From Membranipora membranacea (lineage: Eukaryota; Bryozoa; Gymnolaemata; Cheilostomatida; Membraniporidae), in the NCBI GenBank assembly GCA_914767715.1, contig OU612074.1:16480062-16544061 (forward strand): a DNA stretch of 64,000 nucleotides, in the 5' to 3' direction. Both the position numbers and the translations under genes were made by a program. Positions 6,001 through 64,000 of this stretch are shown here, piece by piece. Within the stretch, counting starts at the first letter, position 1, and each line of letters begins with the position of its first letter. The notes beneath the pieces are model-generated. The model saw nothing but the letters and a program-made list of their open reading frames with translations. It did not search any database and had not been told where the DNA came from.

Positions 6001-6076
6001 AAACATTGTTGAAGTGAAAACAGAACCAGGTATTGAGGATGGTGTTGTCATTGAATGGATTGGAAATAGTGTTTAA
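1..6076 (+). CDS. C2H2 zinc-finger protein, 5' end outside window
   Basis: Likely a nuclear DNA-binding transcription regulator. Exons are <1-94, 2825-2939, 3117-3715 and 4818-6076. All junctions are GT-AG, phases (1,2,1) match, and the visible part is 688 codons plus stop. The N-terminal third is acidic and Ser/Thr-rich with no domain I recognise. Exon 4 carries five fingers at about residues 300-430. The first has a C-x4-C spacing (HRCVVKGC), the second (ACSKC...) is shorter and irregular, and the last three are joined by GDKPFKC/GDKPYKC linkers close to the TGEKP type. After the fingers is an acidic region with three or four diverged repeats of about 27 residues around LPxDI, then three psi-K-x-E sites (VKTE, IKLE, VKTE) that fit the SUMO-acceptor consensus. 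The orthologue is not identifiable by eye. The open frame at base 1 and its phase-1 end show that the gene continues upstream. Confidence 0.85.
672..1590. mobile_element. nested 919-bp terminal-inverted-repeat element, copy 1
   Basis: It is bounded by the 15-bp inverted repeat AAGATTATAAATACT (672-686) and its complement (1576-1590). The interior matches 11667-12400 and 13225-13400 in reverse orientation over most of its length, so this is a dispersed family. Short - strand frames (702-923, 880-1080) look like frame-shifted pieces of one former reading frame, but I do not recognise the product. Confidence 0.6.
2190..2271. repeat. hairpin-forming inverted repeat
   Basis: Two arms containing AAGGTACTAAAAAGGTACTA and its complement flank a loop of roughly 25 bases. 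It lies inside the piggyBac-like element, near its right end. It could be a small foldback insertion or a subterminal structure of the host element. Confidence 0.6.
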
Positions 6077-8154: not shown

Positions 8155-8484
8155 GTAAGTTAACAAATTTATATCAGCCAGCACGGTATCTTCTTAGCCT
8201 GTCTGACAAGCTATGTTCCCATCAAAGCTTGACAAACAGGCTAGGTAGCTTGCATACATGTATAGTCATGTTCATGACCTGTTATCTGAGGAAAGTTTAA
8301 TGTGATTGTGTTGAAACGAGGCAGCAAAATAAGACAGATGAGTTTTGAAACTTGGGGGAGAAATGACCTGACTTGGCCTGGTGTTTTGTGATGACCCTGT
8401 TCTTGTCTCAATATGACATCCTCGCCATGCAAACAAATGTATTGTTGTGTAACTATGTCCCTTCTTGATTCTGCAGGTGGTAGA

Positions 8485-10073
8485 ATGTCAAACTTCTTGC
8501 CCTCGGTGAAAGAAATGGCATTTGGGGACATAGATGATGAGAGTCAAGCGGAAACAAACTCCCTCAATCACTCGATAGATCACAGAGAAAACGAGAAACG
8601 CCACAAGCCTAAGTGGAACATACCAACACGCAGACAGAGACTATGGCGCATTCTGAAATGCATTGCTTTTGTGGTGATTGCTGCATTGGCTCTGGTTGCC
8701 TTCTGTTTGTCTCTACATGGTGGGTACAATCTTTTTTGTGATAGGTTTCATAGGTAATTACCAGAGGCCTAGGTTTTTGAGTAGTGGGTTACAGAACAGT
8801 GTTGAATACTCATTTGATTGGGCCATTTTGTGTTAGGATTTTAATTAAGCTTTCCACAACTTTGTATGATATATTGTGCTTGATTCTGAGGTCGAGTGCC
8901 AAAGCTGCTAAATTTGTCTGGAATCCAACACGGCTAAGCAACTCGGCGGGGCAATAAATCATGTGAATTGCAAAGTGTGCAGCTGCAGACTTTTCAGGGA
9001 ATCAGTTTTTCAATTCATAGACCGATAGGTACAGAACTTTCGGTAGGAATGTTGCTCCAATCTGTATTTTTTTTGTTTTCCAGACCACATTGTTATCAGC
9101 ACTGCCTTCTTACATAATGGGCCAAAAGCCTCAAAACAGTTTTCGAGAAGCAGTATCGATGCTCTCCAGGCGCAGATAGAGAAACTTAATATGACCTTGA
9201 CACAGAGAGTGGACAATCACTACGAAGAAGGAGACGCTCATCACGAGATTCTAAACAACACCATCCATGTCAAACATTCAGACTTGGTAAATGCTGTCAA
9301 AGAGATCAAGGAAGAGTTCAACACCAATCTTTCCGAACTCAACGCCACACTCCTGTTGCAAATGGGTACTCAACACAGAGAAAGTCTCGATACCATAGCT
9401 GACCTAGACCAGTCGATGAGACAGATCCGTGCTGATGTGCAGAATAACAAAAATCAGCTCGATAGTCAACTTAGTAGTCTGCAGACCAATATCCAGTCAT
9501 TGGAGACACAACTGTCAAGGATCGATACGGCAGCTTCTCAACGGGATAGCAATAACAACAATGGCTACGATGGCAACAACAACAATGGCTACGGTGGCAA
9601 CAACAACAACAACAATGACAACAATCGAAAAAGTAAGTTCTTCAAGTCCAAATCATGTGACTGGATCCTATGATGCAAGTCAATAATACATGCACATTTT
9701 ATAAAGTCTCGCTCATCTATACTTGAAACACTGATAGCGACACATTATTATGTAAGCATTCTGGGAATCCAAGAATACTGCATTGTGGGTGCTCTGCAAT
9801 GCTCTGCAATGCTCTGCAATGCTCTGCAATGTTATATTCATCCATGGTGTATCAATATGATTCCATTTGGCATGGAAAAACATTTAAAACTGTTGCATCA
9901 CGGGGATCAATGTGAATTGCTACATAGCTTTTTGCCCAGTTCTAGTATATTTACGCGTATTCATATGTCATTCCTTTATTCTACTTTTAGAGTATAACAG
10001 CGCATCCTACAACAGGGTACTCAATCCGTGGCTGTTAGTCGTTGGAGTTTACAGCGTCATCATGATGATATAA
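8485..10073 (+). CDS. type II membrane protein with coiled-coil ectodomain and C-terminal hydrophobic tail
   Basis: Function is unknown. Exons are 8485-8719, 9084-9632 and 9991-10073; both introns are phase 1 and the total is 288 codons plus stop. Residues 1-56 are polar and basic toward the membrane (RENEKRHKPK, RRQRLWR). Residues 57-77 form a transmembrane helix. Next is an ectodomain of about 150 residues with heptad-like Leu/Ile spacing and N-glycosylation sites (NMT, NNT, NAT), then an Asn/Gly-rich linker. Exon 3 encodes small residues (NSAS), a short spacer and about 15 hydrophobic residues at the extreme C terminus, the usual shape of a GPI-attachment signal. The start could also be the internal Met at codon 11 (MAFGDIDDE), which aligns with the start of the paralogue at 13.8 kb. 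The overall order resembles vertebrate tetherin, but no sequence homology is claimed. Confidence 0.7.
9541..9625 (+). repeat. Asn/Gly codon repeat in coiled-coil gene
   Basis: Runs of AAC with GGCTAC between them encode NNNNGYDG and NNNNGYGG units. The paralogue at 13.8 kb lacks this segment. Slippage of the trinucleotide runs probably makes the length variable. Confidence 0.7.
9790..9830 (+). repeat. tandem repeat of GCTCTGCAAT
   Basis: Four perfect head-to-tail 10-bp copies lie inside the second intron of the coiled-coil gene. Confidence 0.9.
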
Positions 10074-13400: not shown

Positions 13401-13759
13401 CTAGTATGATTAATTGGCAACTAAAACTAAAAGGTCAATAAAGTGATCACATTCATATAAGTATCATTCCCATTTGCCTGCAGTAAAATTGTTCTGCTAT
13501 TTTTAGCCTGGTATATGTGGTATCATTAAACAGTGAGAGCGAAATTGTGTGTGTGTAAGTTTTGAGAGCGAAATTGTGTGTGTGTAAGTTTCGAGAATAT
13601 ACCGTGTGTGTTTCCTGTTCATAACTTTTGGTTCAGATTACAGTCGCTCCTTGTTAGAAACATCCTACTAACAGGTTTATTGTTGCCGTATATTTCTGCT
13701 TGTTATGTCTCATGTGACATATTGCTCAATTGCAAATTCCTCCTTTTTTATGAAAAGTT

Positions 13760-14927
13760 ATGGAATTTGTGGACATTGATGATGGGAGGCTGCCGGGAGA
13801 TGACTCTCTTGACCGCTTGTTGGATGAAGGAGAAAACGAGAAAAGATACGAGCCCAGGGGGAATTTTCTGGCGCTCAGAGACAGATTTTGGCGCTTACTA
13901 AAATTCAAATGGCACCTCCCGTCACACAGAGAGAGAAGATGGCCTGTACCTAATCCTGTTACCTATACGGCTGCTGCTGTCATTGTTCTAGTTGCCTTCT
14001 GTTTGGCTGTACAAAGTGAGTACGATATGATTCTATCAATTACGTTAACTTTTTACAGATTTTGGTTAGTCCTTTTAAAGCTTCAAAAAAGAACTGCTGC
14101 GGCGGGGATTTGAACCCGGGCCTCATTGCAGTCATTGTCACTAACCGCACTATCTACACCGCCGATCCATATCAATGTGATCTCTTATTCAAATAAAAGG
14201 AAAGCGAACGGAAGTTGACCTAAATGCTATTTCCATGTATCGATTGGCCCTAAAATTGATGTCACATCGACATATGGGAACATAGTGATTCACAGAAAAT
14301 TCTAAGTCAGTTACAGGTGTTTTGTAAGCAATATCGCCATGTTATGTTTGTTTTAAACTTTCTAGCAGACTATCAGTATGTTTTGGCCCGGACAGGTAAT
14401 AAAATATCTTGTCCGATCTTTTTAGTCTTCTTGAATGGGGTCCAGCGTACTGTGAGCATATTGTATTATCTTTCCCTCAGCTTATTACATACTTCTGGTG
14501 TGTATTTTAATGTTTTATTCCTTTCCATTATCTCCCAGACCACAGAATTATCAGCTCAGCAAGAAGTGATATTATAGCTCTCAAGATGGAGATAGATAAT
14601 CTCAACATGACTCTCTCCCAACGAGTAGACACCTTTGCTGAAGAACGAGAGGCTAATCACCAGAGACTTAGCGAAACTCTCCATTTAGATCTAATGCAAG
14701 CTGTTCAGATCATTGACAAAGAGTTTAACACCAAGCTGACAGAACTCAATACCACACTGCTTTCACAAATGGGCACCAAACACAAAGAACTAGGCGGCAA
14801 CTTAGCTGAACTAAGGCAGTCAATGAGTCAGATTTATAGCATCGCGCAGAATAACGACGATCAGCTCACAAGACAAGTGAAGGACCTACGGAGGAGTGTT
14901 GAACACCTTCAGAATAGGCTTGGTTGA
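13760..14927 (+). CDS. type II coiled-coil membrane protein, tandem paralogue
   Basis: Function is unknown. Exons are 13760-14015 and 14539-14927, joined by a phase-1 intron, 214 codons plus stop. It aligns along its length with the gene at 8485: the starts MEFVDIDDG and MAFGDIDDE match, as do GENEKRYEP and RENEKRHKP. A basic stretch precedes one transmembrane helix at about residues 66-85. The ectodomain repeats NLNMTLSQRVD against KLNMTLTQRVD, and FNTKLTELNTTLLSQMGT against FNTNLSELNATLLLQMGT. It is shorter: it lacks the Asn/Gly linker and the hydrophobic C-terminal exon, and ends in the coiled coil (HLQNRLG then stop). The acceptor before the start is TTTTTTATGAAAAG ending two bases upstream of ATG, so a 5' noncoding exon is likely. 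Confidence 0.7.
14092..14165 (-). repeat. tRNA-like SINE head or tRNA pseudogene
   Basis: On the - strand the sequence contains a perfect B-box match (GGTTCAAATCC) within CCGGGTTCAAATCCCCG, and an A-box-like TAGATAGTGCGG upstream. The CGGCGG/CCGCCG ends could pair as an acceptor stem. The anticodon arm does not pair convincingly, so a working tRNA is unlikely. It lies in the intron of the second coiled-coil gene. Confidence 0.5.
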
Positions 14928-17428: not shown

Positions 17429-20400
17429 TTAATTGTAAAGTTCACAGAAATCACCAGTAGAAGTTCCGGGCATCTGTCCATCTGCTGCGGAGTTCACATA
17501 GACCTTGTTACCATGTGTGTTGTGCTCTACCACTGTGTCAGCATATACAGGCTGTGACATACAGGAAGTGATGTCACCCAGAGGCTCGTAAATTGAGTCA
17601 GTCGGTGTCACCGGTAATGGTGCATCCTTTCCCGCTAAAATTAGAATTTTTCAGACTTGTTATAATCAATTGGTTTCCTAGAATCAATTTGTGCTGACTT
17701 AATTACGGGCAAATGAGATCAACCTTTTTTCAATCTCAGAGTAACTGTCAAATAATTAAGTTTTTTAAGCTGTAACAGATTTATGTTCTTAAACTTTCAA
17801 GGGCGCTTGAAGTAGAATTTCGTTTTGATAATTTAGCTGGATACAATTTCCTTATAAATTTACAAATAGAAGACTTCCCAAACGTACCTGATTGGTGAGT
17901 GCTGTACCGTGGCTGAGAATATGAATAAGAGAGTTGTTTGTGTAGTTTATGGTGGTTCTCTTCAGATTTCATTCTGAGGCGGTAAAAAGAATAATGCAAC
18001 TATAAATCTGTCTCGCCAAGGTGCCGCGCAAGGCAGTTAGAAATGTGATATTGTAATATAAAGGGTCAATAACTTCAAATTGTCAAAAGATAATAAAACA
18101 CAAAGCATCCCATTTTGATACATTCATTCGCTTGAACTTTTCAGATTGACCCTCGCACCTGAGCTTTCCTGTGGGCTTATAAAGTGGTAATGTCCACAAA
18201 AGGTTTGGTTGCTGCAAAGCAATTAGAAGATTCTGCCTACCTCGTAGATTGCGGAGAATTCCGACGTGTTCTCAACATCACAATTGTAGCCAGCAACACC
18301 AAACATACCACTGTCAGGCCACCACAAACTCCTCCAATTATTGCCTTCTCTTTGCTAGAACTCCACCCGCCATCTTCTGTGAAGTACAGCACAGTACTTG
18401 TGATGACATTATTCATATTTAGATCAGATTCATGACTATCCCCAAAATGCATTACCGGTAGTTCGTGGAACTCCGAAAGAAGGCGGTTGTGCATTTAAGA
18501 TTCTGAATTCTGATTATCTTTACAATATTTTACCCTATATAATTGTTTACAAAAGTTTGAAGTGTCTTCCGTCATTTTGGGTCATCTTTTCTATTAGGTT
18601 TAAGGCTGAACTAACATTTACATTTATCAAGAAAACGTAGTGGCATTCTCAAACTTCCGGCTTCGACCATTTAACTTAACTACTGTGTCAGCAAGTCACT
18701 GTGTTTATTGATACATGTAATGTTTTGACACTCACCACTATATGTTAGGTCCGTATAACCAGCAGCTGAAAAATAAAACGCAATGCATAACAAATTTGCT
18801 GACAACACTTATAAAATCATCACCAGCCTCTTTCCTGCATACAGTTTTCTGAATAGAAATAATTTAGGTTGTTTCCCCTCTATTGGTTTTCCCCTGACAG
18901 TGCTGTAGAAGGCAGCAAACCAGTTCATTAAGAAAAAACAAACTTTGATCATAAAAAATTAAACTTGAAACACTATTCCATTAGATTTCTCTTATTGATG
19001 ACTTGACTGACTTATGTTGCAGAACTCCTAGTGGAATATTGCGCCAGAATCGCCTTCTCCTTTCCCTTCCATCATTCTCGATCTCTAGCCATCTCGCTAG
19101 CCTCCGCCCACGACTTGATGTTGTGTACCTTCATCTGTTTGAGCGCCGTTCTTCGCCAAGTCTGATTGGGTCGCCCTCTCCTTCGGGTGCCTTCAGGGGC
19201 CCATCCGAGACTGGTGTGAGGGAGAGATTCCTTCCTCCTTAGGCTGTGTCCTAGGTATCTCCATCTTCTAACATCAATGTGCTGAGAGACTGGTTTCTGC
19301 TTGCTGCGTTCACATACTTCCAAGTTGGAAGTTTTGGACCACCAATATATTTTCAATATCCGACGGCAGCAGTTCATGTGAAATACCTCCAGTTTGTCCA
19401 TATCCACTTTCGCCATTCGCCATGTTTCACATCCATAGAGGAGCACAGACACCACGTTCGAGTTGTAGAGTTTGAACTTGAGATGGTTGCTCATACTTCT
19501 TGATCTCCACACCTTGTTTAGTCTGTAAAAGGCTGTAGTTGCAGAGTTGATGCGGTTCTTGACATCTGCTGCTGCACCACCTGACGCATCAATTTTCGCA
19601 CCAAGATACAAAAAGTTATCTACAAACTCATTGATGAATGAATGTTTAATGCAATGCAACTGTGATCTAGAACATCCAAAGGAATACTTTATAGTTCAAG
19701 ATAAGACTTACTTATATAAAAGTTTAGTTTGAATCCTTGACCGGCAGTGTTCATGGTATTGGTGTGAAACCGAAAACTGATCGACCTTTCAGCTACCGGA
19801 AATCTGTAAGGTGTGTCCAAGAGTGGCTTTGATACCACGAAGTCACAAAGTTTCAGTCTCCAACTCTGTCCAACGATCCCTCCAAACTCTAACCAGTCAG
19901 ATTCACAGTTCTTATACTCCGGATTGTAGTAGAGATCAAAGCTCTCAAACATCACAGTGAGGACATGTGATGTGTTTAGCCCGAGAAAGGTAACATTTGT
20001 GTCAATACTGGGACTATAGGTAGTAGTAGGATATCCCTGATGGCTGATTATCTGTCCTGAAAATCTTTTACTGAGATAGAGTTTGCTATCGATATCTGAC
20101 ATGATGATTGGGGGATAACTTTGAACTGCATCTAAAAAATAAAAAAAATCCTTAATTGTCTTTATGAATAAAAAAATGTTAGAACTTTTACCTTGGTGCA
20201 ATCTCAATTATACAAGGTTACATTCCTGAGACTGTAGGCTGCAGCTGATACATGATAATAATTCTAGAGTTTTGTAAAAATAAAACTGTCTGACTCTAGT
20301 TTTGTTAGTAAATATTAGTTGCTATTTGTGCTACAAAAAGACATATCAATGGATGTCTCAATCGCGATGGACAGGGAAGGAGTAAATGCAGTTTGGGTCA

Positions 20401-36519: not shown

Positions 36520-38504
36520 TCATAAGCTCTCGCTCTCGCTCTCACTCTCGCTCTCACTCTCGCTCTCACTCTCGCTCTCTCTCTCTCTTGCTTTTTCTCT
36601 CGCTTGCTCTCTCTCTCTCGCTCTTGCTCTTGCATCCCTGCGTTTCTTACGCTTTACATACCAGGAAGGCGGTGCTGGCAGTTTAAAATAAGGATCGGAA
36701 ATCTCAGCGAAATCATGTTTGGCAAATTCGTCTGCCTTCTTCCTGGTATGCAGATATCCGTGCCTTCTTTTCTCCCCTACTTTAACTTTTTCATACTTTG
36801 CCTCGTCATAATTTACTTTCTTGGTACCTGGTCTCAACTTGTTGAGGATACTAGCCAACGACATCCAGTCTGTGACATTTCTGAAAGAATGTATATTTAT
36901 TCCGTTTGTAGCTGATAATCGCGTAAGCTCTATAGTATTTCGCCTTTGCTCTTCAAAATTGTTTTTAGAAAAATAGCTGGTGCGGCATTTCTCACAGCTC
37001 TGTCTATAACACTGATAAGGAGCAGCAGCAATTATTTCCACTATCAAATTACAACGGTAATTAGATCTAATCCATTTTTTTAACTCGATTATGTCAGAAG
37101 AACACTCATCGCATGGGGAGTTACTTAAATAAAGTTTGACCCTTAGGTTTTTTTTATCCGTTGTTATTTTCTTCAAAATAAACCGGATCACAAACTCCTC
37201 TGCATGGACCCTGCTAGTGTTTTGGAAAACAGCGAAATTGTTAGAATCTTCCAGGCAAACAGCACACCAAGTCAATGGAAGCCAGTCGGGTCCATGCACT
37301 CCACTTATCAGGAAATTATCAAACATTTCCTTGGCTGATGTTCTGAGGCCTGAAAAATAAAATTCAGTGTAAAATAAAGTGACATACGGGGTGGGGGAAA
37401 ATCAGCATATACAGGGAAGCGCTAGAGTGTACAATTTCTCGAGGTCTTTAGTATGCACCTCTTCTGCAAATAGCTTGATAGCTTGATAGTAAGGCTATAA
37501 TCGGGATAAAAATACAATCAATCACAAACAAGTGCACAGACAAAACATCTGTGTCTTTCGGAAATGTTTAGACGGATGGTGCCATGGTATATTATCTCAT
37601 CAAGTTAGGAGAGTATACGTTAGTAGAAAAAGTTGGTGTACTTTAGACTTGAAATACGTCTTTGATCAATCTCGAAACTGTATATTTAAAAACACCCTAA
37701 TCAAGCTATAGATAAAAGCTTAAAATAAACCCAAAGCTTGAAATAGGTTGAATCCATAGTAAACCTACCAAGCAAAATCAAGTTTGAGGATATTTAAAGC
37801 TCTAATCGTATTTGCAGTTAAGTTGAAAAGAGGTTCTCGCTTTAAAGATGATAACCAGGGCAGTAATCTGAGATCACAGTGTCAGCACACACAACATAAT
37901 GGATTTTTGATAATCATTTCTAAACCGAACCTTTTGTTAAAAATTTTGCAACTGACAATTTTATGAGCCTATTCCAACTTGTGAGCTCACTTCAAAGTTA
38001 TATGTATTTATTGATGACACACCAAAACTTTTTGGATTAGACATGCAGCAATTTTAGAAGAGATATGATTTAGATTTCGTGGACTACATAAAATTGCAGC
38101 AAATATCTTCCCGGTTGCAATTTGGAGACCTCACTAAAAAAATTAGGTTCGTTTTAATCTCTAACATCTATTAATTTGAATCATGTCACTGTTTAATTTG
38201 TCCAACAGTGAATCCTTCAAATTTGAAAAAATATAGTTTCAGCAACATAGGGGCAGGTGACTGGGCGCATGGCACTATGTTGAAATCCAAAAGTTGTGAT
38301 GTCAAATATATCACCCATATATTAGCTCTCAATGGATGAGCATCGAGGCAGCCTCAGACTGCAACTCATCAAAAACATTGCAATGTCAGTCATAATTCAC
38401 CAAACCATTTTAATTTGCCCTACAACAGGTCTGGTAACAACTTATAATAATGTCTTACTTGGTGGTGTTAACCCTAGAAAGTGCTTCTCGTTAAAGTCTG
38501 CCAT
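36520..38504 (-). CDS. AID/APOBEC-like cytidine deaminase
   Basis: Predicted zinc-dependent deaminase of cytidine in single-stranded DNA or RNA. Two exons, 38504-38459 and 37349-36520, phase-1 GTAAGA...CAG intron, 291 codons plus stop. Residues 64-66 are HAE and residues 94-98 are PCDEC, giving H-A-E-x27-P-C-x2-C, the zinc site and proton-shuttle Glu of the deaminase fold. The preceding YLSNSPC parallels the SWSPC block of AID/APOBECs, and downstream INIHSFRNVTDWMSL parallels the family's C-terminal strand and helix. An extra cysteine cluster (Cys129, Cys134, Cys137) sits in the loop region after the second catalytic helix. Residues 190-250 are basic. The last 45 or so are Arg/Glu and then Ser/Glu repeats encoded by a CTCGCTCTCACT microsatellite. 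The first exon rests on ATG, donor and matching phase. No signal peptide or membrane segment is seen. Which AID/APOBEC-like clade it belongs to cannot be set by eye. Confidence 0.85.
36527..36640. repeat. CTCGCTCTCACT microsatellite in coding sequence
   Basis: Pyrimidine-rich hexamer/dodecamer repeats encode the (SE)n and RE-rich end of the deaminase on the - strand. Repeat number is likely polymorphic. Changes in multiples of six keep the frame. Confidence 0.85.
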
Positions 38505-39391: not shown

Positions 39392-40538
39392 CAGGGCTCT
39401 CAACCACTCAGGTTTAGCCCGAGTTACTCAGATTTTTGGGTTCAACGCAGGCTACTCAGGGGATTTTAGAATGTAAGCTAAAAACTCAGATTTTGCTCGT
39501 TGGCAGAGATGAATAATATATAAACAATGCTAAATGTTGCCTTACAATAATTTATGCCATATTATTAATGAATGATCCAGTATTAGATTCTAGTTGTGAT
39601 AAGCTATGTAAATAATACTGCACTGCCTATACTAATAAGGCCTCTCACTGCACTCACTGTAATAATACTCTCACTGCACTGCCTATTCAAGTCATTTCTA
39701 AGTCAATGATCAAACAATGATCCCAGATCCCAAGAGATTATTATGGCTAAATAGAAATTGGAATTTTATACATGTTAAAAAAGTGATTTTGCAGGTGAAC
39801 CGGATAAATCCAGGCAATGATTTCAATAGCATCACATTACATTAGTTATGCCTTTCTACCCTGGCGCCTTTAAATCAATATTTTTACAAACATATTTTAA
39901 CATCATGGGGATTCATTTTCACCTGTGGCGACGGCCTTGGTTAGTCCATATGAATTGGTTCATCTGGATCAAATCTAAAATTATTTACGATTTTATGTTT
40001 ACAAGAAATGCTTTAGGTTTTTATTGATTTACTTGCTATCACAAACATGAAATGTTGCGAGAAAAGGATGCATATACTTTGTCAATAAAGGAACTTGCTA
40101 CTAGAGTATGGAACTTGCATTTGAGGGCATCGCTCTAGAAAATTGTGTATGATGTGATCAAGGAGTTGTCTTAAACAATTAAATTAAAAACTTTCCTTAG
40201 TTATTTCTTGTCTATGGTACATATGCTCGTGTGCAGAATAGGCAGACAATAAATACATCAAGAGGGAAACTACACAACTTTTGAACATCATGAAAGCTAA
40301 TGGCTTGCAACTTAGATGCAACATTTTTTTAACAACATACATTCTTTGACTTGCTTTGCCAGTTATTCTTTGCACATAATCTTCAAATCTCAGGTGTTTC
40401 ACCCAACAATATTTCGGTGCCATCTCAGACGTACCCTCAGCTGTTTATGCTCAGGGCGTTTTACACCTTTAAAATACCACTATGCGACATGCTAATATCA
40501 AAACTCAGGTTTCGAATCCTCTCAGGCTGAGAGCCCTG
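39392..40538. repeat. inner inverted repeat CAGGGCTCTCA inside the hAT element
   Basis: CAGGGCTCTCAACC at 39392 and its near complement GGCTGAGAGCCCTG ending at 40538 face each other, each next to a CTCAGGTTT motif. This may be a second hAT-like element nested in the first, but no target duplication is visible. Confidence 0.45.
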
Positions 40539-42736: not shown

Positions 42737-45700
42737 TCACATACGACTTTGCCTAGAAAAATAATCTAACAGATCTTTTGCTATATCTTTCCGCCGTATC
42801 TGTCTTAGAGTTTCTATTAACATGATGACATCAAATGTACCATTGGTCTGCCTCCATATTCTCATCGATTCTATAGATTGATACTTTTCTTGTGAAGTTT
42901 TCTCTTCTATTTCAGCAATATCATCTATAAGAATAGAAAAGTCTTGTTAGGTGCACTTATATTTGTCCAATCATTAGTCGACACATCAGCCAAGCTGTAA
43001 TCTGGAACAAGCTTGATACAAACTGTATTTTTTAGTGAGCCTGTGTCCTATTTGCTATCAGCTGGGTCAAACTTGATCAAGCTGTACCATGTGATCAAGA
43101 GTTTGATAACAGGGTATTGATTACTTCAGGCAGTGTAGGTTTAAAAAGGGGCTGTGTAGATTTTAGAAATAATTGAGACTATCATAATCTCTTTGGCAAG
43201 GGCTGGTTTAGTATCAATACCAATGCCAATTATTGTCACTGCAGAAATTTTGTCAAACTGTGTCAAAGATCTAAAGCCTGATCTACCCAGTTTGAATTGT
43301 TAAGAGTGCCTCATTCCCATACTAAGCTTGTCTTCTACTCTATTGCATGGGTTAGTTGGTTATCCTCAGGCTCACCCCTAGTCCTAATGGCGTCATAAGA
43401 TGAACAAAGAGAGATATACGCCCAAGGGAACTGGGGGCTGGAACAATCAACCTCGAAAGTTCCCCAGTGGGACTTGAACCCACAACTTCTTCGGCACTAA
43501 TCACCTGGCAGTTACATCACAATATGAACAACGAGTAAAGAAACACATAGCTAAACTTACCTTCAATATCCTCTTCATCTGCATCTTCAGTTTTGAGCAT
43601 TAGTTTAGTGAAGAGCTGTCTCCACTGACCAGAGTCTAGTTTGTTGGACACCATCCATGTCACCTTATGTTCACTGTCAGGGCTCAGGCTTATTCTACTA
43701 AGGTCAAGGTCCTCCAAACTCTCTGTATTACAAAAAGATTAAAGTTAGATGTGAACCACTTTTATTTAGCATGTATCCATACACAGGTAATCAACTTAGT
43801 GCACTCCTGTACAACTAAGGGGTGGGCAAGCAAGGTAATCTCTTGAGAGCTCACCTCCATTAACAGAATGGGAATGACTGAGATTCAAACCAGTAGTTTC
43901 AGATTGCAAAGCTCGAATTATAACCATTACAGCACCTTGCCACTACCTGCATTATCACTAAGAGCCGGCACATAGCTGCCTGACTTTAAACACAACCAAA
44001 TATTAGCCATCTTGGTATATTATTGATTATATTTGGATAATGTGATAACCTAACCTGTTGATGTGCTGCCCACTGAGTCCCGTTTGATTGGTTGAGGTAT
44101 GGGTATATCTACTGTCTGTGTCTCCTGGTTAGAAGTCTTCACTTTTCTGGCTGACGGCAAACTTCTGTGCGACATAGAGGTTGTGGATCGAAAGCTTCTC
44201 ATTGACCTTATAGAGTGACCTGATAATCACAAGGAAAACTTTACATGCTGGGATTTTGGTTTGTTATCGCAGTCTTCAAGTGTAAGGATACTAGATATTG
44301 AAATGACTGAGGTTCCTGCTTTACCCCCAAATATACATTGACAGTTGAACAACTGAACTTTCATTGGTCTTCATTACTACACAGTACCTGCACATATGTA
44401 ATACTTGCAGTCTTGCACAATTACACCGAATACACAACATTTAATTAAAATAGGAATAATATGATATCATTTGCAAGGTACCATAACCTCGAATGTCCAC
44501 GTCGTCAAACCCAATAGTGTGACTGATGTTTTTCTTCTGTCCAGAAAATGAGAGATACCTAAACATTTTACAGGAGTTGTCCTCTTTAATAGTCAGAGCA
44601 GACAACTCAAAACTTATTAGATGAAATTTAATACCTGCTTTGAGATAATTGTTGTTTTGGTCATGTGATATTTTACTGTACTCTTCTCTCACAGAGAGGA
44701 GCTGCTGCAGACCTGATGACGTCAGGCTCCTCATATCCTGATGTATACCTAAAAAAGAATTTGATTCGGATTTTCTACCGAGTGTTTCCCGAAATTGACA
44801 CCCAACCTGGTTGTTATGGAAGCTTCATAAAATGGCCAGCTGCTGATTTGTTTATCATTGTTTATGTGACTTGACAGAGTTGTGAGAGAAATATTGATCG
44901 TCTGAAACATCTGCCCTCTCAGATTCTGAGAGAACTACAGTAAATACTGAAAGTGAAATCAAGTTATGGAAAGTAATAGCAGGCTGAAATTCAAATGAAA
45001 TACTTACATCTCAAACTTGTAGGACTTCTGGTAGTTTCTAGGGCTTTGCTGTAAAGTTCTTGCATCGCTAATAAGTCTTCTAATTCAGTAGATGTCACAC
45101 TATAGCTTTGACTTCCTACTAAATATATAATATTAACGTGAACAGAAGGTCAACCACCCAATAAATATGGTCGACGAATTGAGCTAGTCAAGTGCATAAG
45201 TAATTATATGGAAATATGGAGAACTCATGCATCTGCTTAAGGTTTTACACGATTTTATGCTGGACCAAGCTTTGCCAATGTTATGGCCCTGATAGGCTGA
45301 TGGGCGGGAGAGAGCCAATGCAAGGTTAGATGACCCTTCCCTTAAAGTTTCAATTGATATACAGTTAATGTAGAAGTAGTTCAATTTCAATTTTATCATT
45401 TCTCAAGAGGTTAATTCAGTGACTTGGCATTAGCTCTCTTTCCCACCTAACCGCCAATCAGATCAGAGCCAACATATCGGCTTGACCATAAGGTAAGACT
45501 TACCTAAGGAACCACTATCATCATGGTCACTGACAATATTGGGTAGATTTTGAGGAGGGGAGTTGAGTTTTAGTTTTCTGCCGAGGTCAAACCTCCCAGA
45601 TTCGAATGTGTCATCTCCGAATGTGCTCTCTAGTATCTTCTTGTATTGTTCTCTAATGGCTATAAGTTCTGTTAGCTCTGTCCCTGGAAACAGTTACGGT

Positions 45701-50725: not shown

Positions 50726-50957
50726 AAGTAAGGATGCATAAGAAGTATGCTGAAAAAGTTTGACGCATCAAACTATTTAGTTAAACATTGAAGGCCTCGA
50801 TTGCATCTTTGTAAGTGTTTGGCTTTTGACACCATTGACACAAAATCTCGACAGCCAAACATAACGTTGCAGACAGAGAACAAATTTGCTTCCCAATTTC
50901 ATACACCAATATTAACATCAAGTAGATCTCACCATTGCAATCACTATACAACACAAT

Positions 50958-51150
50958 ACACAGACACAGACACAGACACGGACACGGACACGGACACGGA
51001 CACGGACACGGACACGGACACGGACACGGACACGGACACGGACACGGACACGGACACGGACACGGACACGGACACGGACACGGACACGGACACGGACACG
51101 GACACGGACACGGACACGGACACAGACACAGACACAGACACAGACACTGC
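50958..51150 (+). repeat. (GGACAC)n hexamer tandem array
   Basis: About 190 bp of near-perfect GGACAC units, with GACACA variants at both ends. All reading frames stay open through it, which produces long artefactual frames on both strands. Confidence 0.95.
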
Positions 51151-51699
51151 CAGGTCAAAAGCATACAATCCGACATGACGTCAGGAAAACATGGTAGAAA
51201 TCCTCGTTTTCTGGTAGCTATCAGAAAAGGAGCCTATTCTGCTTGCATGTTTGGTACAGACAGAGGAAACTGGCTGAATTGACCTTCAATATTCCCATGA
51301 TAGGCGATAAGATAAAATTCAAATATCGCATTCTCTTGTACAGAAGGTCATGCAAATATATCCCAGAAAACACAATACAATATACACCATATTATATATA
51401 AAATATTAGTATAATTATAACAGAGACTATGGATATATCTATAGTCTCTGATTATAATAAATACAGCATTGTCACATGGTGTAATCAGTGCGTTGCAAAA
51501 ATCATGCTATTCAACTTTAACGATTGGTTTTATTTTTAAAAATGTTTTCTCATTCTTACGGACAGTTTAGCGTTCAATTTGCATCATATGTCTTAATAGC
51601 TCAAATTGAATTGCCTGCTTAGTACCCAATAAAGTAGAGGCTGATCGGCACCCACATTGCTCAAAATATTTTTTAGTGGTGCAATAGAATTAGGTTGTC

Positions 51700-52957: not shown

Positions 52958-55900
52958 TCACTTTCTCCATTCATCCAGGTAGGCATAGCTGTGAGAATCA
53001 GTTTGATGTTCAGCTAAGTTTATCGTCTCATATTCATTCTCCTGTTTGCTCTGTGATCTTGTCATTTGAAAGTCATGAGGGTCTCTGGTTGATGGGTGAT
53101 CTCTGCTATCATGCACTGAGTCGTAATATCTATCTGGTAATACAGTCATTTCATGTGCCGATATGTCTGCATCTAGAAAAAATACACATATTGCGGTAAT
53201 CATGGTTAAGAATTCCTAGATTTTGTAAACAATGTTTTGTGTGCTAAGTGATATATAGTTTGATTCATTTTGCGGTATTTGGTAAAGACATATTGTAGGT
53301 TTAGTTGGGTAATAAAACATTTGCATATTTGTAATGTTCAGGTATTCTTCTGTAAAATATGTAAATATAATGTGTGTCTTCCATCTCGTTGGTTAGTAAT
53401 TGAGCACAATGTGATGTCGTGTGGTGTGAAGCAGGGTTACTAGCTGAGAAAGCATATATTATACTGTATATGTAAGTCACCTCTTCCCGATCTGTTCTGG
53501 CTGAAATAGAAACAATCATATTACCGAATTCTCTCGCATCAACCACATAACATTAAAAAACGAGTAACTTACCAATCAAACTCAAATTAATTGATTTGAT
53601 CTCTGCAAGCTCTTTGCTAAAGCTATAACAAAAAAACACTCCTACCCCACAGTTAATTTCAAACATGCGCTGCAATTAATACAATGCATCACAAATGGAA
53701 GAATTGTTTGTGACTTAAATACCAGGCCAACTATGTTACGGAAACCATTCAGGTGAAACGAGGATACAAGAATCACTCTATTTGTCTTTATTCCCTTCTT
53801 CAAGTTACATATTCGGAGGCAAGTATTCCCTGATTTAATCTGATAATACTCACTCTGATAAGCTTGACATCTGAATTCGGTGAAGACTATCAGTTGCCTC
53901 AATTCTTTCTGGCTCTGATATACCTGTAAAATATTAATGGTGAGTATATAAACAGTATCACAACACTGTTTGAGACAACATGTTAAATGTTCACAGGAAG
54001 TCTGATGAAAGCTGTACAATAATAGTTTCTGATGGGTTATTAAATTGAGCAGACTGTTTGATGTTGGTGCAATAGATACCTACCATTCCGTTTTCTCCAA
54101 CAGCAAACACAAACCGAACAAAGAAGGATTATCATTACAAAGCCCCCGGCTGAACCTGCTTAAATCCATTCACTGATCACCATCCTCTGCCCTTGTGTAG
54201 TGGCAAGCTCTGTAGTTAGTGTGGAACAATGTTCATCTTCAACCCATTTGATTATCCATGTTATGGTCAGCATTTTACTCAAACCTAGCAAAGCAAAGGT
54301 AACTCTCCATAGTGCATTCCGATTCCAGACTCATATCGGGCCATATAATTCAAAAATGGGAGGGAGTCATCACACCCTGGCAATCGATCGTTGTCCTTTA
54401 TGATTGGAAGGGATATGGTGTGTTGAAATACTCACAGGCCATATTATAAAACATTACAACTGGCTAATAATGAAAAAATTTCAACTTAAATTGTGATTAC
54501 TGATAGGGATTTCGATATGTGCCTGAAATCATCCGGCTTTGTAACTTGACAGTTTAATAATGCGAACAAAAATGAAAACAGCAGAGTATTAAGGTAACCA
54601 TTTTTTGCTCATAATACAATACTCACCAACTTCATCAACAGTTGCCGAACACGTTATTATCTCAAATTCAGTTCCTATATCTGTATCCTGGCCATATATA
54701 AGAGTATCATTTGTAAAGGTAGTGAGATTATTTACGTGAGATGACCAGGTGTAAGTAGGAGTGGGTCTTCCCTCTATATCACACCTTAGGAACACTGGGT
54801 AACCAGGCTTTGTTTCAACATAGCGGTAATTAGGCAGATCCCAGTCATGTGCAATATCCACAAATTTCAAACGAGAATGTGTTCCTCAATATCCAAAGTG
54901 TCCACGATTATGAAAACATGCTTAGAAAATCTACCAAAATTACATTTATGATGACATCGGTTGGGAAAAAGATAATGGAAAATCCACTCAATAATCAGAT
55001 TATGACAAAATGAATTATTTTTTAAAGTAATACTTCACTTTCCATATCGGGATGTAAAAACTCACACATAGGCATGATATTCGTAGACAGCTCGACGTCA
55101 TCAAGTGATATAGACCTCCAATCAGAGTTTCCCGTGTCCACACATCTTACTTGAAATCCATTTCTGTCTGCTGGGGTCGGAGCATACAATCCACCTGGTA
55201 TCGTAATAGTAGTGTTTCCTCGCACCACTTCTGTGGCAAGACTAATAATTTAACCACAAGCAGGTCATAGGTAATCAGGACAATGCTATTAGTGCATTAC
55301 CAGAAAGGGTGGTTGATAACTAAGAATACAACTTATTGATAAGCTCGATCCACATAAAACATCAATGAGACAGAATAAGGATGCATTGCAGTAGAATGAT
55401 AGCGCCTGTGAAGATGGGGAAAACTGGAAGAGGCCCTCCCCATCTTTACAAGTGAGGATCTGTATAAAGCTGATTTTTATGGTATATTTGTTTGCATTTA
55501 TTATCTCCTGTGAAATTATTAATGCTAAAGTCAAAAGATGTGTGTGCATTGTCACTATAACATCAGAAATCAAGAGTGCGGAAAAAACTTATTCCTACTT
55601 ACTGTTTAGTTAGACTGCTTTTGGCCTCTATTTTTTGAGGATTATATTTTGGTAAAACTTGTTCAACCTGCCAACATCCATAATAGATGCACACATGCTC
55701 AGTTCAATTCCTCTTTGAACCATTCATACCGTTCAGGTTACTTCTTTGTGTCAAGCAAGACTCAATACAATAATGCTGTCCTTACCGTATATGTAATCAC
55801 TCTGATTAGATGAAGATGAGCAGTGAGCTGAGAAGGTTTGATTTTCTATGACTGGGCTGACATTTATCTCCATCATGGCATTCTGTGGTGGTTCTACAAA

Positions 55901-59319: not shown

Positions 59320-62300
59320 TCATTTTCTCCGCTCATTCAGGTAGGCATAGTTGTGAGCCTCATTGAGAAGTTCGGCTAAGTTAATCACCTCATATTCATT
59401 CTCCTGGTTTCTCTGTGGCCTTGACAGTTGAAGGTCATGAGGGTCTCTGGTTGATGGATAATTCCGGCTGTCATACACTGAGTCATAAGATCTATCTGGT
59501 AATACAGTCATTTCTTGCGTTGATATGTCTGCATCTAGAAAAAATACAAATGATTGTGGTAATCATGGAAAGGAATTCCAAGATTTTCCAAAGAATTTTT
59601 TGATGTACTGAGTGATATTCATATTGGATCCTTTGTATCATCTCGTATTTAGTACAGACATATTGTAGGTGTAGTTGGGTTATACAAACTGTTGCTTGTT
59701 TGTTCAGTTCAGGTGTTAATCTATGATATTTTTGTGTCTTCTGTTAATATTTGTGTGTAATACGACGTCTGTGACAAGCAGGGTACCAGCAAAGACAGCT
59801 CATTTTATACATTTTTTAATGTGAAGGTCACCTTCTCCCGATCTGTTATGGCTAAAAAAGAAAATGAATTATGATTGAATTTAATTACATCGATAACATG
59901 ATCAAAGTGTCAAAATTAAACATTATTAAATGTAATAATTAATTTAAGAAAAATGAGATTTTCAATTAAAACATTGAAACTTTAGTATGGTGAACTTATC
60001 GGTTGAAGAGGTAATCTTCTTCATAATGATGATGCCCCTCCTATCACACGTTGCAAATTTCTAATCATATTCAATCATGTGTAATGGCTAGGACAACCAC
60101 AGAAAAGAGACTCACTTTGTTGAATCTAAGATCCTATTTTGATCAAGAATGCTGGTTGGTCCATTCCTCCCTGCTACAAACGTATCTGTAAAATATGATT
60201 GGTGAATATGTAAACAATAAGAGGCAATGTATTACTGCTTAGTACATCATGCAAAATGTCCCAAATGCCATCTCTTTGAGCCTCTGAATGCTCATTGCCA
60301 AGAAGTGACTTAACAGCATAATGGTTGTCAGAGTTGGAACCTCAATAACATTTATCCACCAATTTCAGAATCATATTTTGGGAGTTATTGGAAATAATGT
60401 GTGAGAAAATTTTTGGTGAGGTGGAGATAATTTCGGAATTCAATTCTATCCATGAACCACAAGTAATCTTTTGATGAAAGGAGTAGGACACTTTTTAAGC
60501 TAGGGAGAGTTTCAAGCTAAAGGTCTAGTTGAAAAGCTTGAATAAATGCCATAATATGAAAATGATTTTGCTTTTTTATGCAAACTGTCATGTGACCCCG
60601 AGGTAATACCTACAGTTAACCTTATCTGTGTAAGATGTGGAAAATATAGGTATAGGGGGATGCCAATCAGGAAGGGGTTCCAGGGGCTGCCTAGGCCACC
60701 TTCGGGGGCCGGGGCGGAGCCAGAGCCCTGTGGTGATTACAAATGGAAATGCATCATTTTTAGCCATATTTTGGGAAACACTCGTCATGATACATAGGGC
60801 GATGCATCCCTTAGACAAAAAAGGAAGAGGGACACCGTCTCCTTGCATCCCTCCTAAATTCTAACACTGGACCCAAAAAGTCTGTTTAAACACATGAGTT
60901 CGATACAATTAAGCCTACCATTTTGTTTTCTCCAACAGCAAACAGAAACCGAAACCAGGAACACTATCACTATAAATCCTCCACCAGAACTGGCAAAAAC
61001 CCATACTGGGGTAGTAGTGACCTCAAACAGTGGTATCATTTCCGGCTCTTCATCAACCACAGTGATGATCCATGTTATAGAAAGTGGGGGCATCAAGCCT
61101 ATCCAAACAAAAACAAAGATTATTATTCAGCTGTACATTCAAACAATTACCTCATATGGTAGGCTGAGAATTTGAAGATGAGAATGATGAGTGATCATGG
61201 TTTTCTTCGTTTAGAGCAGGTATGTTGCGTCTAAACATACTTTCAGAACTCATATCGACCAAACTGTAGCAAAGTTACTGGTCAATCTTAATCTGATAGA
61301 TGATCTAATAAAAAAAGACACTTGTCGGGGGACTAGAGCCCTTCTGATACTAACCAAAAACTTCAGCAGTTGCCGAACACGTTATCTCAACTACAGGGCC
61401 TAATTCTGTATCAAATCCAAGAATTAGAGTGTCATTAAAGATGGTGGTTAGGTCGGATGAGTTAGATGACCATGTATAATTTGGAGTTGCTCTCCCCTCT
61501 ATATCACAGGTGAGAGTAACAGGTTTAGCCAGTTTCACTTCCAGGAAGCGAAGACAAGGCAGGTCCCAGTTATGAGTGATATCTGGAATTGAATTGAAAC
61601 AGAAAATGGTTATCACTGTGAAAAGAGTGCATTCATTCATACAACCATCGCTACTGAATTCATTTTCATGATGATGCTTGAGACCACTGCACCATATCCT
61701 TTCCTAGATTATAAATTATTTCCATAACACATTGATCCATGCTAGACAATTTAGGATCACAAAATCCTGAGATGCAGTGTCCCTTCACAAAGGATTGCAT
61801 AGTTAAGACTTTGAACACACTGAAGTCACACCCTTGCTTCAAAACCAACCCAATATTATCAGCCCACTAGAAATGGTCTGAGATAAATTCATAGATCCAC
61901 AGGAGAAAGTGCAGAAGTTCCCTCAAAGTGGCTTGACGGGTATATAAGGCCCAGTCAACGTAAAGCGATCACCCAGCCATATCAAATTCAAATAGGCTTA
62001 GCAGCATTCAAATTCCTCCTGCTTTTTTTGGGAATATGATGAACAGTCTCGACCTTATTGAGATGAAAATTGCATGGACTGATGCAAATTTTTCATACAT
62101 ACATCCCTATATAAATCTTATTCCAAAACTTTCCTTAGAAAGTGGTGAAAATGCATCAGCTTTGACTCATAATTGCACAGCCACAGAGATTTCAAATTAC
62201 CCGCCCCACATTTTACTGGTTCTTATTGGTCGATTTTGAAATATGATTGACAGATTTATATAGTGCCTTGAATTTTTGTCAAGTACCTGGTTACGGTTGC

Positions 62301-63923
62301 TGTCAATAATTTTGTAATCAATATGCTTATATGCTATTAAAATCCTCAATCAAGTTTACATCGAAATGGGATAAAATACTTAGAGTTTTTGAGGGTTGTA
62401 ATTACCAAAACTCTATGTTTCATAGGGATTAGTATCTAAAGTAGAAAGGATTCCAGTGAAAACTAGTATGATGATGTCATGTATTAGTATATATGGAGAA
62501 CAGTCACCTCATTAATAATTGGTGGTCCTGAAAAAGGGCATTGGGTTTAGGGCTAGTCATTTTGGTTGTCACACATTGTCACCCATGAATACTGGACATA
62601 TGGAGGAATGCATGACCAAACTTTTTTATACTAATTAGCCGCAGCAATTTTTATGCAACTTTATTTTTGACCTGTAACTTCCATGACCGTTACAGGTGGT
62701 GAGGAATTCCCTTCGACTGCAATAGAGCAACAACTATGTATATACTGTACACCAAATTTTTGCACAAAACTAGAAAGTGCGTTTCAACATCTCTCTGGGG
62801 TGTGGGTGTAACTGGCCAAACAAAATTACCTTTTCGGCAACACTCACAATCAACCGGAGGTTGGCCATGGCCTGATTATCGCACACTTTCACACCACAGC
62901 CGACATGATTTCCCTTCAGATATTCTCTGTATCATGGAAACCCTCAGACTTTTGCATTTATCTTCATCTGCCCATAGGCCTCTAATGTAACACATACCAT
63001 TAAAAATTTGTACCGCAAATTGTCCGTAACAAGTTTTTATCTAGAGGAAGGTAATGCAGCAGTAACTCTCTTATTCGCTTTCATTTCTGCAAGATTATTT
63101 TTATTATCATTGTATCAAAGATTAATACAATTATACCTCTAAGATAGTTAGAACTAGTTTACACTATTCACTGTACAGGTCCGTAGTTCTAGGTGAGGCA
63201 CAAAGGCACTGCCTCCCCTAGAAAGTTAAATACAGTGGCCTAAAAACACTCTAATTCAATAATCCATGTCAGAATCAGCTCCTCTGGGATTTCCAGTTGC
63301 TTATTACATGACTTAAATTTCTCGGGGAGGAGGTTACTGGTGATGCATTGGACTCGCCTCGAACCTTTTATACAGTGGAATAGCAGAATACAAATAATCC
63401 TTGTTTGTACACAAAGTCAAATGTATTCATCAGCTGATGTGAAGTGTCACTTCCTTTCAACATCAAACACACATTGCAGTCGCTGCAAAGCTGCAAGGGC
63501 ACCGGTGTTGCTCAATTTCTTGCATAACACACTTGAGCACTTGAAAAAACACATGGAACATGCAAGCTCGATTTCTGCAAAACTCAAATGTAACGTGGAC
63601 TGGGCTAAAAGAGGCGGAACTAGGCGTGACATTACACTCATTATCCAATGGTCTTGCTGTCAATAGCAAAAACTAATTATGATTAATCCCCGTGCACCCC
63701 CTTTAAGTATTTTACATAAATTATCTGGCTTGAATTGTAGAATCAAGAAATAACTTACACCTAGGCAGGATATCTGTCGACAGCTCAATGTCAGCTAGAG
63801 ATATTGTCCTCCAGTTAGGATTACCAGTGTCTACACATCTTACTTGAAATCCACCTCTGTCTACTGGACTTGGTGTGTATCTTCCATCTGGTATCACAAT
63901 AACGGTATTTCCTCTCACCACTT
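59320..63923 (-). CDS. Ig-type transmembrane receptor with tyrosine-motif tail, 5' end outside window
   Basis: Probable cell-surface signalling receptor. Exons 5' to 3': 63923-63759, 61582-61355, 61098-60919, 60185-60116, 59851-59832 (20 bases), 59534-59320. All joins keep frame. The first visible exon encodes a beta-rich module (VVRGNTVIVIPDGRYTPSP, FQVRCVDTGN). The second is an Ig-like domain: LTCDIEGRATPNYTWSS with the first Cys and Trp, and VEITCSATAE with the second Cys. The third has a juxtamembrane stretch, then about 22 hydrophobic residues ending CCWRKQNG. The cytoplasmic tail carries YDSVYDS, NEYEVINL (Y-x-x-I) and YAYLNE (Y-x-N), plausible SH2-binding sites. No strict ITIM is seen. 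The phase-1 acceptor at 63923 shows that more ectodomain and the signal peptide lie beyond the window. Confidence 0.75.
60650..60740. repeat. GC-rich island in receptor intron
   Basis: A short block (GGGGCTGCCTAGGCC, CGGGGGCCGGGG) stands out against AT-rich flanks, in the intron after the membrane exon. It may be part of an inserted repeat. No coding or tRNA signal is seen. Confidence 0.35.
61583..63758. other. large receptor intron
   Basis: About 2.2 kb separate the two ectodomain exons. I see no further exon: frames at 62736-62990 and 63340-63666 lack domain or splice support. The corresponding intron in the broken copy is only about 0.2 kb, so this intron has expanded. Confidence 0.45.
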
Positions 63924-64000
63924 CTGTGGGAAAAGCAAGAGTCAAGGCACAATATATGCAGCTCACAGGCATTCAAGTTGAAGTAAGTTTTGCTGAAACA

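What the first reader, a model, noticed from the sequence alone, without database searches (positions are those of the whole stretch)
36520..38504. AID/APOBEC-like deaminase in an invertebrate-type locus
The protein has H-A-E-x27-P-C-x2-C with the family-type YLSNSPC block and the C-terminal IHSFRNVTDWMSL element, so it fits AID/APOBEC better than generic cytidine deaminases. AID/APOBEC-like enzymes outside vertebrates are known, but are patchy and mostly uncharacterised. A two-exon gene with a phase-matched 15-codon first exon can be proposed here.
Basis: partly seen in the sequence, partly recalled or inferred. Interest (0 to 1): 0.9.

Follow-up and report, generated by a model that had tools for sequence, protein, structure and literature searches.

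The report
Bryozoan APOBEC-like DNA/RNA deaminase gene
This is a gene for an AID/APOBEC-type enzyme, the kind vertebrates use to mutate viruses and antibody genes, found in a sea-mat bryozoan where it belongs to a large gene family that looks like an innate defence arsenal.

The parts
38459..38504 (-). proposed coding exon 1 (15 codons plus 1 base)
   Evidence: best donor of 96 phase-compatible candidates; short candidate first exons before a phase-1 intron in C10 paralogs; no transcript data
37350..38458 (-). proposed phase-1 intron, 1109 bases
   Evidence: donor CAA|GTAAGA, acceptor TTTTTCAG|GC
36520..37349 (-). exon 2: AID/APOBEC-like deaminase domain, conserved C-terminal helix, low-complexity tail and stop
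   Evidence: AATAAA 289 nt after the stop
37294..37296 (-). loop-1 His (H18 of the modelled domain), invariant in A1; candidate second-metal ligand
   Evidence: alignment A1; Ile in L024, which also lacks the loop-7 CxxC
37198..37206 (-). catalytic H-A-E
37102..37116 (-). zinc-binding P-C-x2-C
36985..37017 (-). loop 7 Y-x-C-x4-C-x2-C (Y111, C113, C118, C121); candidate second-metal ligands
   Evidence: Y111, C118 and C121 invariant in A1; C113 and C118 follow beta4, C121 is in a short helix before the main alpha4 in the model
36709..36750 (-). conserved C-terminal block HTRxxADxFAxxDF
   Evidence: alignment A1; helix 202-216 in the model
36526..36630 (-). hexamer/18-mer microsatellite that codes for the RARERE..SESESE tail; no such tail in the paralog ORFs read

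Best explanation
The gene encodes an intracellular zinc-dependent polynucleotide cytidine deaminase of the AID/APOBEC superfamily in the bryozoan Membranipora membranacea. SHOWN by computation: superfamily membership, intact HAE..PCxxC site, AID/APOBEC fold, membership in a multi-locus family, and co-occurrence of a loop-1 His with a loop-7 CxxC. INFERRED: zinc held by H48, C79 and C82 activates water, with E50 as proton shuttle, to turn C into U in single-stranded nucleic acid. INFERRED: H18, C118, C121 and probably C113 bind a second metal that staples loops 1 and 7, which flank the substrate groove in solved APOBECs (recalled), and so fixes target choice. INFERRED: like sea urchin and Lingula relatives, it acts as an innate mutator of viral or retroelement nucleic acid, and the family diversifies under conflict.
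Against: No activity, transcript or localisation data. Of ten members in A1, three have lost catalytic residues, so the family is not uniformly catalytic. No strand-skewed signature in 62 pairs among 30 reverse-transcriptase loci, although those were the best-scoring copies. The second metal site rests on co-conservation only; model coordinates could not be read, and L024 has another His-Gly 14 residues before the lost position, so it is not free of nearby histidine. The dN/dS excess is significant only for the pair that includes L011, which carries a stop; the L014/L016 interval (0.81-1.84) includes 1. Intracellular location rests on first exons that are themselves unproven.
Confidence: 0.66

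Rival explanations
1. AID/APOBEC fold but no polynucleotide mutator activity: an APOBEC2/APOBEC4-like protein that binds nucleic acid or protein partners without deaminating DNA.
For: Three of ten aligned family members have lost the catalytic residues yet keep the loop-1 His and loop-7 CxxC; APOBEC2 and APOBEC4 models also match members; the authors of PMC5956068 call several SpAIDLs and LaAIDL2 inactive in their assays.
Against: The window copy keeps all six HAE/PCxxC positions, with profile and fold support for a complete catalytic core.
Confidence: 0.18
2. A secreted SNAD-type deaminase: an unseen signal-peptide exon replaces the proposed exon 1.
For: SNAD4 Pfam match 35.4 bits; a phase-1 intron at the N-terminus suits a signal-peptide exon; one hydrophobic candidate exon at 41923-41833 in the window with donor score 6.7; hydrophobic candidates also in five of the eight paralogs scanned (L010, L011, L012, L013b, L016), and those of L010 and L012 resemble each other; 3 of 10 members (L012, L013a, L016) have more N-glycosylation sequons than shuffles at p<0.05.
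Against: The mutually similar short exons of L009-L012 and the top-donor candidate of L016 are not hydrophobic; the hydrophobic candidates of L010 and L012 have weaker donors (2.3-6.3) than the short non-hydrophobic exon they share (8.2); sequons are not enriched in the window copy (2 observed, 1.88 expected).
Confidence: 0.1
3. A decaying or unexpressed gene copy.
For: No transcript was seen; L011 has an in-frame stop and L017 looks degraded; the C-terminus runs into a microsatellite.
Against: Intact 293-codon frame with conserved catalytic, core and C-terminal helix residues at 36-41% identity to the C10 paralogs, a divergence at which I would expect an unselected frame to be broken.
Confidence: 0.05
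4. Another deaminase family (tRNA-adenosine, free nucleoside, dCMP or bacterial toxin-type).
For: dCMP_cyt_deam_1 scores 24.2 bits, just under its cut-off of 25, and 27.3, above it, for paralog L009.
Against: Four AID/APOBEC models lie above cut-off, PDB profile hits are AID/APOBEC only, the fold rows shown are AID/APOBEC only.
Confidence: 0.01

Closest known systems
SpAIDL (sea urchin) and LaAIDL (Lingula) AID/APOBEC-like deaminases, Liu et al. 2018 (PMC5956068)
   Same: Invertebrate AID/APOBEC-like proteins with H[AVS]E-x24-36-PCxxC and, for the sea urchin ones, an APOBEC_N domain; the sea urchin family has nine loci, five of them frame-shifted in the reference genome; Lingula is also a lophotrochozoan
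NAD1 (Pfam PF18778, Novel AID APOBEC clade 1)
   Same: Best Pfam match of the window copy (39.2 bits) and of 7 of 10 paralogs scanned, up to 72 bits for L024
   Different: NAD1 is described from ray-finned fish, coelacanth, amphibians, lizards and marsupials (PMC8201067, passage); no tree was made
SNAD4 (Pfam PF18750)
   Same: 35.4 bits, above cut-off
   Different: SNADs carry signal peptides and SNAD4 is described from sponges only (PMC11004436, passages); no well-supported signal peptide here
Vertebrate AID and APOBEC3 proteins
   Different: 12-20% identity in the structure alignments shown; SNSPC or NYSPC in place of the SWSPC of the aligned APOBEC3s; cysteine-bearing loop 7; extra conserved C-terminal block and low-complexity tail

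Membership tests
AID/APOBEC superfamily | HxE-x24-36-PCxxC zinc and catalytic motif | tested here: met
   HAE-x27-PCDEC at 37102-37206
AID/APOBEC superfamily | significant match to APOBEC_N (PF08210) and related models | tested here: met
   36.5 bits against cut-off 25; NAD1, SNAD4 and APOBEC2 also above cut-off
AID/APOBEC superfamily | AID/APOBEC fold | tested here: met
AID/APOBEC superfamily | C-to-U deamination of polynucleotides | not testable with these tools
   needs a mutator or biochemical assay
NAD1 clade | Pfam PF18778 above cut-off | tested here: met
   39.2 bits against cut-off 27, but APOBEC_N and SNAD4 score nearly as well
NAD1 clade | groups with NAD1 in a tree | not tested
   no NAD1 sequences were available
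SNAD (secreted) clade | N-terminal signal peptide | tested here: inconclusive
   favoured exon 1 is not hydrophobic; alternative hydrophobic exon at 41923-41833
tRNA-adenosine / free-nucleoside deaminases | best profile hit to those families | tested here: not met
   PF00383 24.2 bits, below its cut-off of 25 and below four AID/APOBEC models; none among 46 PDB hits
tRNA-adenosine / free-nucleoside deaminases | closest fold in the structure comparison | tested here: inconclusive
   not among the 50 rows shown, but only 50 entries are shown

The most novel reading that the evidence does not exclude
Bryozoans carry a distinct AID/APOBEC subfamily with a second, structural or regulatory metal site made by a loop-1 histidine and loop-7 cysteines. 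The site is kept more strictly than the catalytic site, because members that have lost the catalytic residues keep it. Target recognition or partner binding through a metal-stapled loop 1/loop 7 would then be the family's core function, with deamination optional, inside a diversifying innate immune repertoire.
Probability: 0.35. Interest if true: 0.7.

Novelty: new member of a known kind. Interest (0 to 1): 0.52.

Why it matters
It adds a bryozoan to the animals with multi-locus AID/APOBEC-like deaminase families; a search of the held library for bryozoa with APOBEC gave 5 papers, none about bryozoan deaminases as far as titles and abstract openings show. The mix of catalytically intact and dead members that share a conserved loop-1/loop-7 motif gives a direct way to test whether substrate or partner recognition, not deamination, is what selection keeps. 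It bears on how mutation-based immunity arose before vertebrate adaptive immunity.

Tried and rejected
Death-domain fusion: same-strand exons at 43738-43560 and 42925-42740 encode a Death domain when joined (29.6 bits). The phase-1 donor I saw at its end is weak (about 1.9 bits by hand calculation with the matrix) and a stop follows its last helix, so I read it as a separate upstream gene. An earlier script used the wrong phase; one search corrects it.

Shared first exons: found for L009-L012 only. L014, a close relative of L016, showed no match to the Q-rich candidate of L016 in the 4.7 kb held, and L013b and L018 showed no shared exon.

Retroelement hypermutation: 30 of 150 scored reverse-transcriptase matches (5868 first-look candidates) were fetched, 62 pairs passed the filters, 48 had at least 10 transitions, and none had a G/A versus C/T skew at p<0.01, the lowest p among the rows printed being 0.0118. 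Summed over these non-independent pairs C/T exceeded A/G (456 to 376), the opposite of the expected direction. The copies were the best-scoring ones, so hypermutated copies would be missed.

Homologues in the large protein set: none for the single sequence (E<=0.001, E<=10). Four for the profile: P0002 and P0003 nearly identical by eye to L013b and L018, P0004 and P0005 related to L018. A genome search with APOBEC_N gave 12 matches, no locus beyond the 16. NCBIfam gave no match. Rfam and tRNA scans of the window gave none. The 2018 PNAS survey of metazoan AID/APOBECs is not held; that it reports metal-binding inserts in substrate-facing loops is my recall of its abstract. A tree against known clades was not made for want of reference sequences. 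Geometry of H18, C113, C118 and C121 could not be measured because model coordinates are not given. PF00115, PF18774, PF17919 and P0004 genome searches did not complete.

Full report
WHAT WAS CHECKED. The minus-strand frame 36520-37401 is open for 293 codons and carries HAE-x27-PCDEC. In 40 Markov copies of the window the longest frame was 210 codons and the catalytic pattern never appeared, so this is not chance. The proposed first exon (38504-38459, MADFNEKHFLGLTPP plus one base) fits the phase of exon 2 and has the best donor of 96 candidates in 6 kb. An AATAAA lies 289 nt after the stop.

WHERE IT IS. The window is G000:C10:16480062-16544061 in a 339,339,785-base genome of 18 contigs. Contig C10 is 24,422,204 bases and C5 29,963,023. 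These equal the N90 and N50 scaffold lengths of the Membranipora membranacea assembly tzMemMemb1.1, whose chromosome 10 is 24.42 Mb (PMC10290214, section 5 read). The paper gives 339,374,674 bases in 21 scaffolds, slightly more than is held here. C18 is 14,741 bases, matching the 14.7 kb mitochondrial genome. The animal is a bryozoan.

THE FAMILY. A protein search of the genome gave 12 loci and NAD1 gave 4 more, so at least 16; APOBEC_N added none. A further N-terminal half exon lies in L017. Four paralogs lie on the same chromosome at 19.25-19.43 Mb, others on C2, C4, C5, C6 and C7. In 9 of 9 loci whose acceptor I picked out (window, L009-L012, L013b, L014, L016, L018) it is in phase 1 just before the deaminase exon (frames); the C5 group also seems to have an intron inside the core. 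L009-L012 share a short candidate first exon: L009, L010 and L012 begin MxSxSTIM, while L011 lacks that ATG and would start at a later one. L016 has a short Q-rich candidate. These are not signal peptides, but hydrophobic alternatives exist in the window and five paralogs, so secretion is not excluded. Of the ten rows of alignment A1, five keep all six motif positions (window, L009, L012, L014, L016), L010 has HME, L013a has HVE with SCxxC, and L013b, L015 and L018 have lost catalytic residues. Outside A1, L011 has HAE..PCxxC but an in-frame stop, L024 has HAE with six residues between the two cysteines, L025 has HAE..PCDRC, L026 has HTE, and L017 looks degraded. For L027 only the C-terminal half was found.

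THE LOOP-1/LOOP-7 MOTIF. In A1 the invariant positions are H18, Y111, C118 and C121. H18 lies between alpha1 and beta1; C113 and C118 follow beta4, and C121 sits in a short helix before the main alpha4, in the places of loops 1 and 7 in APOBECs. Among 14 tabulated loci, 12 have both the His and the CxxC. The two exceptions are L011 (stop-bearing; His and CxxH) and L024, which has Ile for the His and lacks the cysteine stretch. L024 does have another His-Gly 14 residues earlier. Two of the 16 loci were left out of that table: L017 (His present, C-x-C; degraded) and L027 (CxxC present, N-terminal exon not found). L024, without the motif, is the member scanned that best matches the general NAD1 model (72 bits; next L016 at 59.0). 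Shared presence and joint absence suggest one metal site built from both loops; its geometry was not measured. Where C113 is lost in A1 (L015, L018), a His follows it.

EVOLUTION. dN/dS is 1.77 (bootstrap 1.07-3.45) for L009/L011, but L011 has a stop; it is 1.19 (0.81-1.84) for L014/L016, both open. For the window against L009, L010 and L012 (37-41% identity) silent sites are too diverged to compute dS. The tail of the window protein is coded by a microsatellite; no such tail was seen in the paralog ORFs.

HOW IT LIKELY WORKS. By established AID/APOBEC chemistry, H48, C79 and C82 hold zinc and E50 moves protons for hydrolytic deamination of C to U. Loops 1 and 7 line the substrate groove in solved APOBECs (recalled), so a metal joining them would set sequence preference. 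Lingula and sea urchin relatives act on DNA in bacterial assays and are enriched in microbe-exposed tissues (PMC5956068, abstract and sections 6, 9 and 10 read). The simplest role is therefore an innate mutator against foreign nucleic acid. A first test for hypermutated retroelements was negative but used only the best-scoring copies.

KNOWN VERSUS NEW. Invertebrate AID/APOBECs are published. NAD1 is described from vertebrates and SNAD4 from sponges (passages). I found no paper on bryozoan AID/APOBECs in the held library (5 papers hold both terms; titles and abstract openings seen only). I file this as a new member of a known kind, with a possible new structural variant.

Noticed in passing
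42740-43738 (-): Two exons that join in phase to a Death domain (Pfam 29.6 bits), about 4 kb upstream of the proposed deaminase exon 1 on the same strand; likely the 3' end of a separate gene.
   Followed up: partly
52961-55249 and 59323-63972 (-): Two tandem gene fragments with Ig-like segments (below Pfam cut-offs), a membrane-like stretch in one (sub-threshold Orthoreo_P10 match, 21.1 bits), and tails with tyrosine motifs such as YETINL and YAYL; they look like duplicated Ig-superfamily receptors, about 14-25 kb upstream of the proposed deaminase exon 1. No link to it was tested.
   Followed up: partly
8395-9670 and 13754-14924 (+): Tandemly duplicated ORF pairs with a membrane-like segment followed by a coiled-coil-like exon; of the four, only 14511-14924 passes a Pfam cut-off (HEF_HK, 25.8 bits against 24.1).
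   Followed up: no
39804-40238: A repeat about 83% identical to sequence upstream of paralogs L010 and L012, in the opposite orientation.
   Followed up: no
4787-6073 (+): C2H2 zinc-finger ORF, 429 codons.
   Followed up: no
19075-19695 (-): LINE-like fragment (DUF6451, 35.6 bits; LINE is my reading).
   Followed up: no
50784-51233: Long simple-repeat array open in several frames.
   Followed up: no
P0004, P0005: Public contig proteins related to catalytically dead L018 that also keep the HG and CxxC motifs; whether from this species is unknown because the check did not complete.
   Followed up: partly
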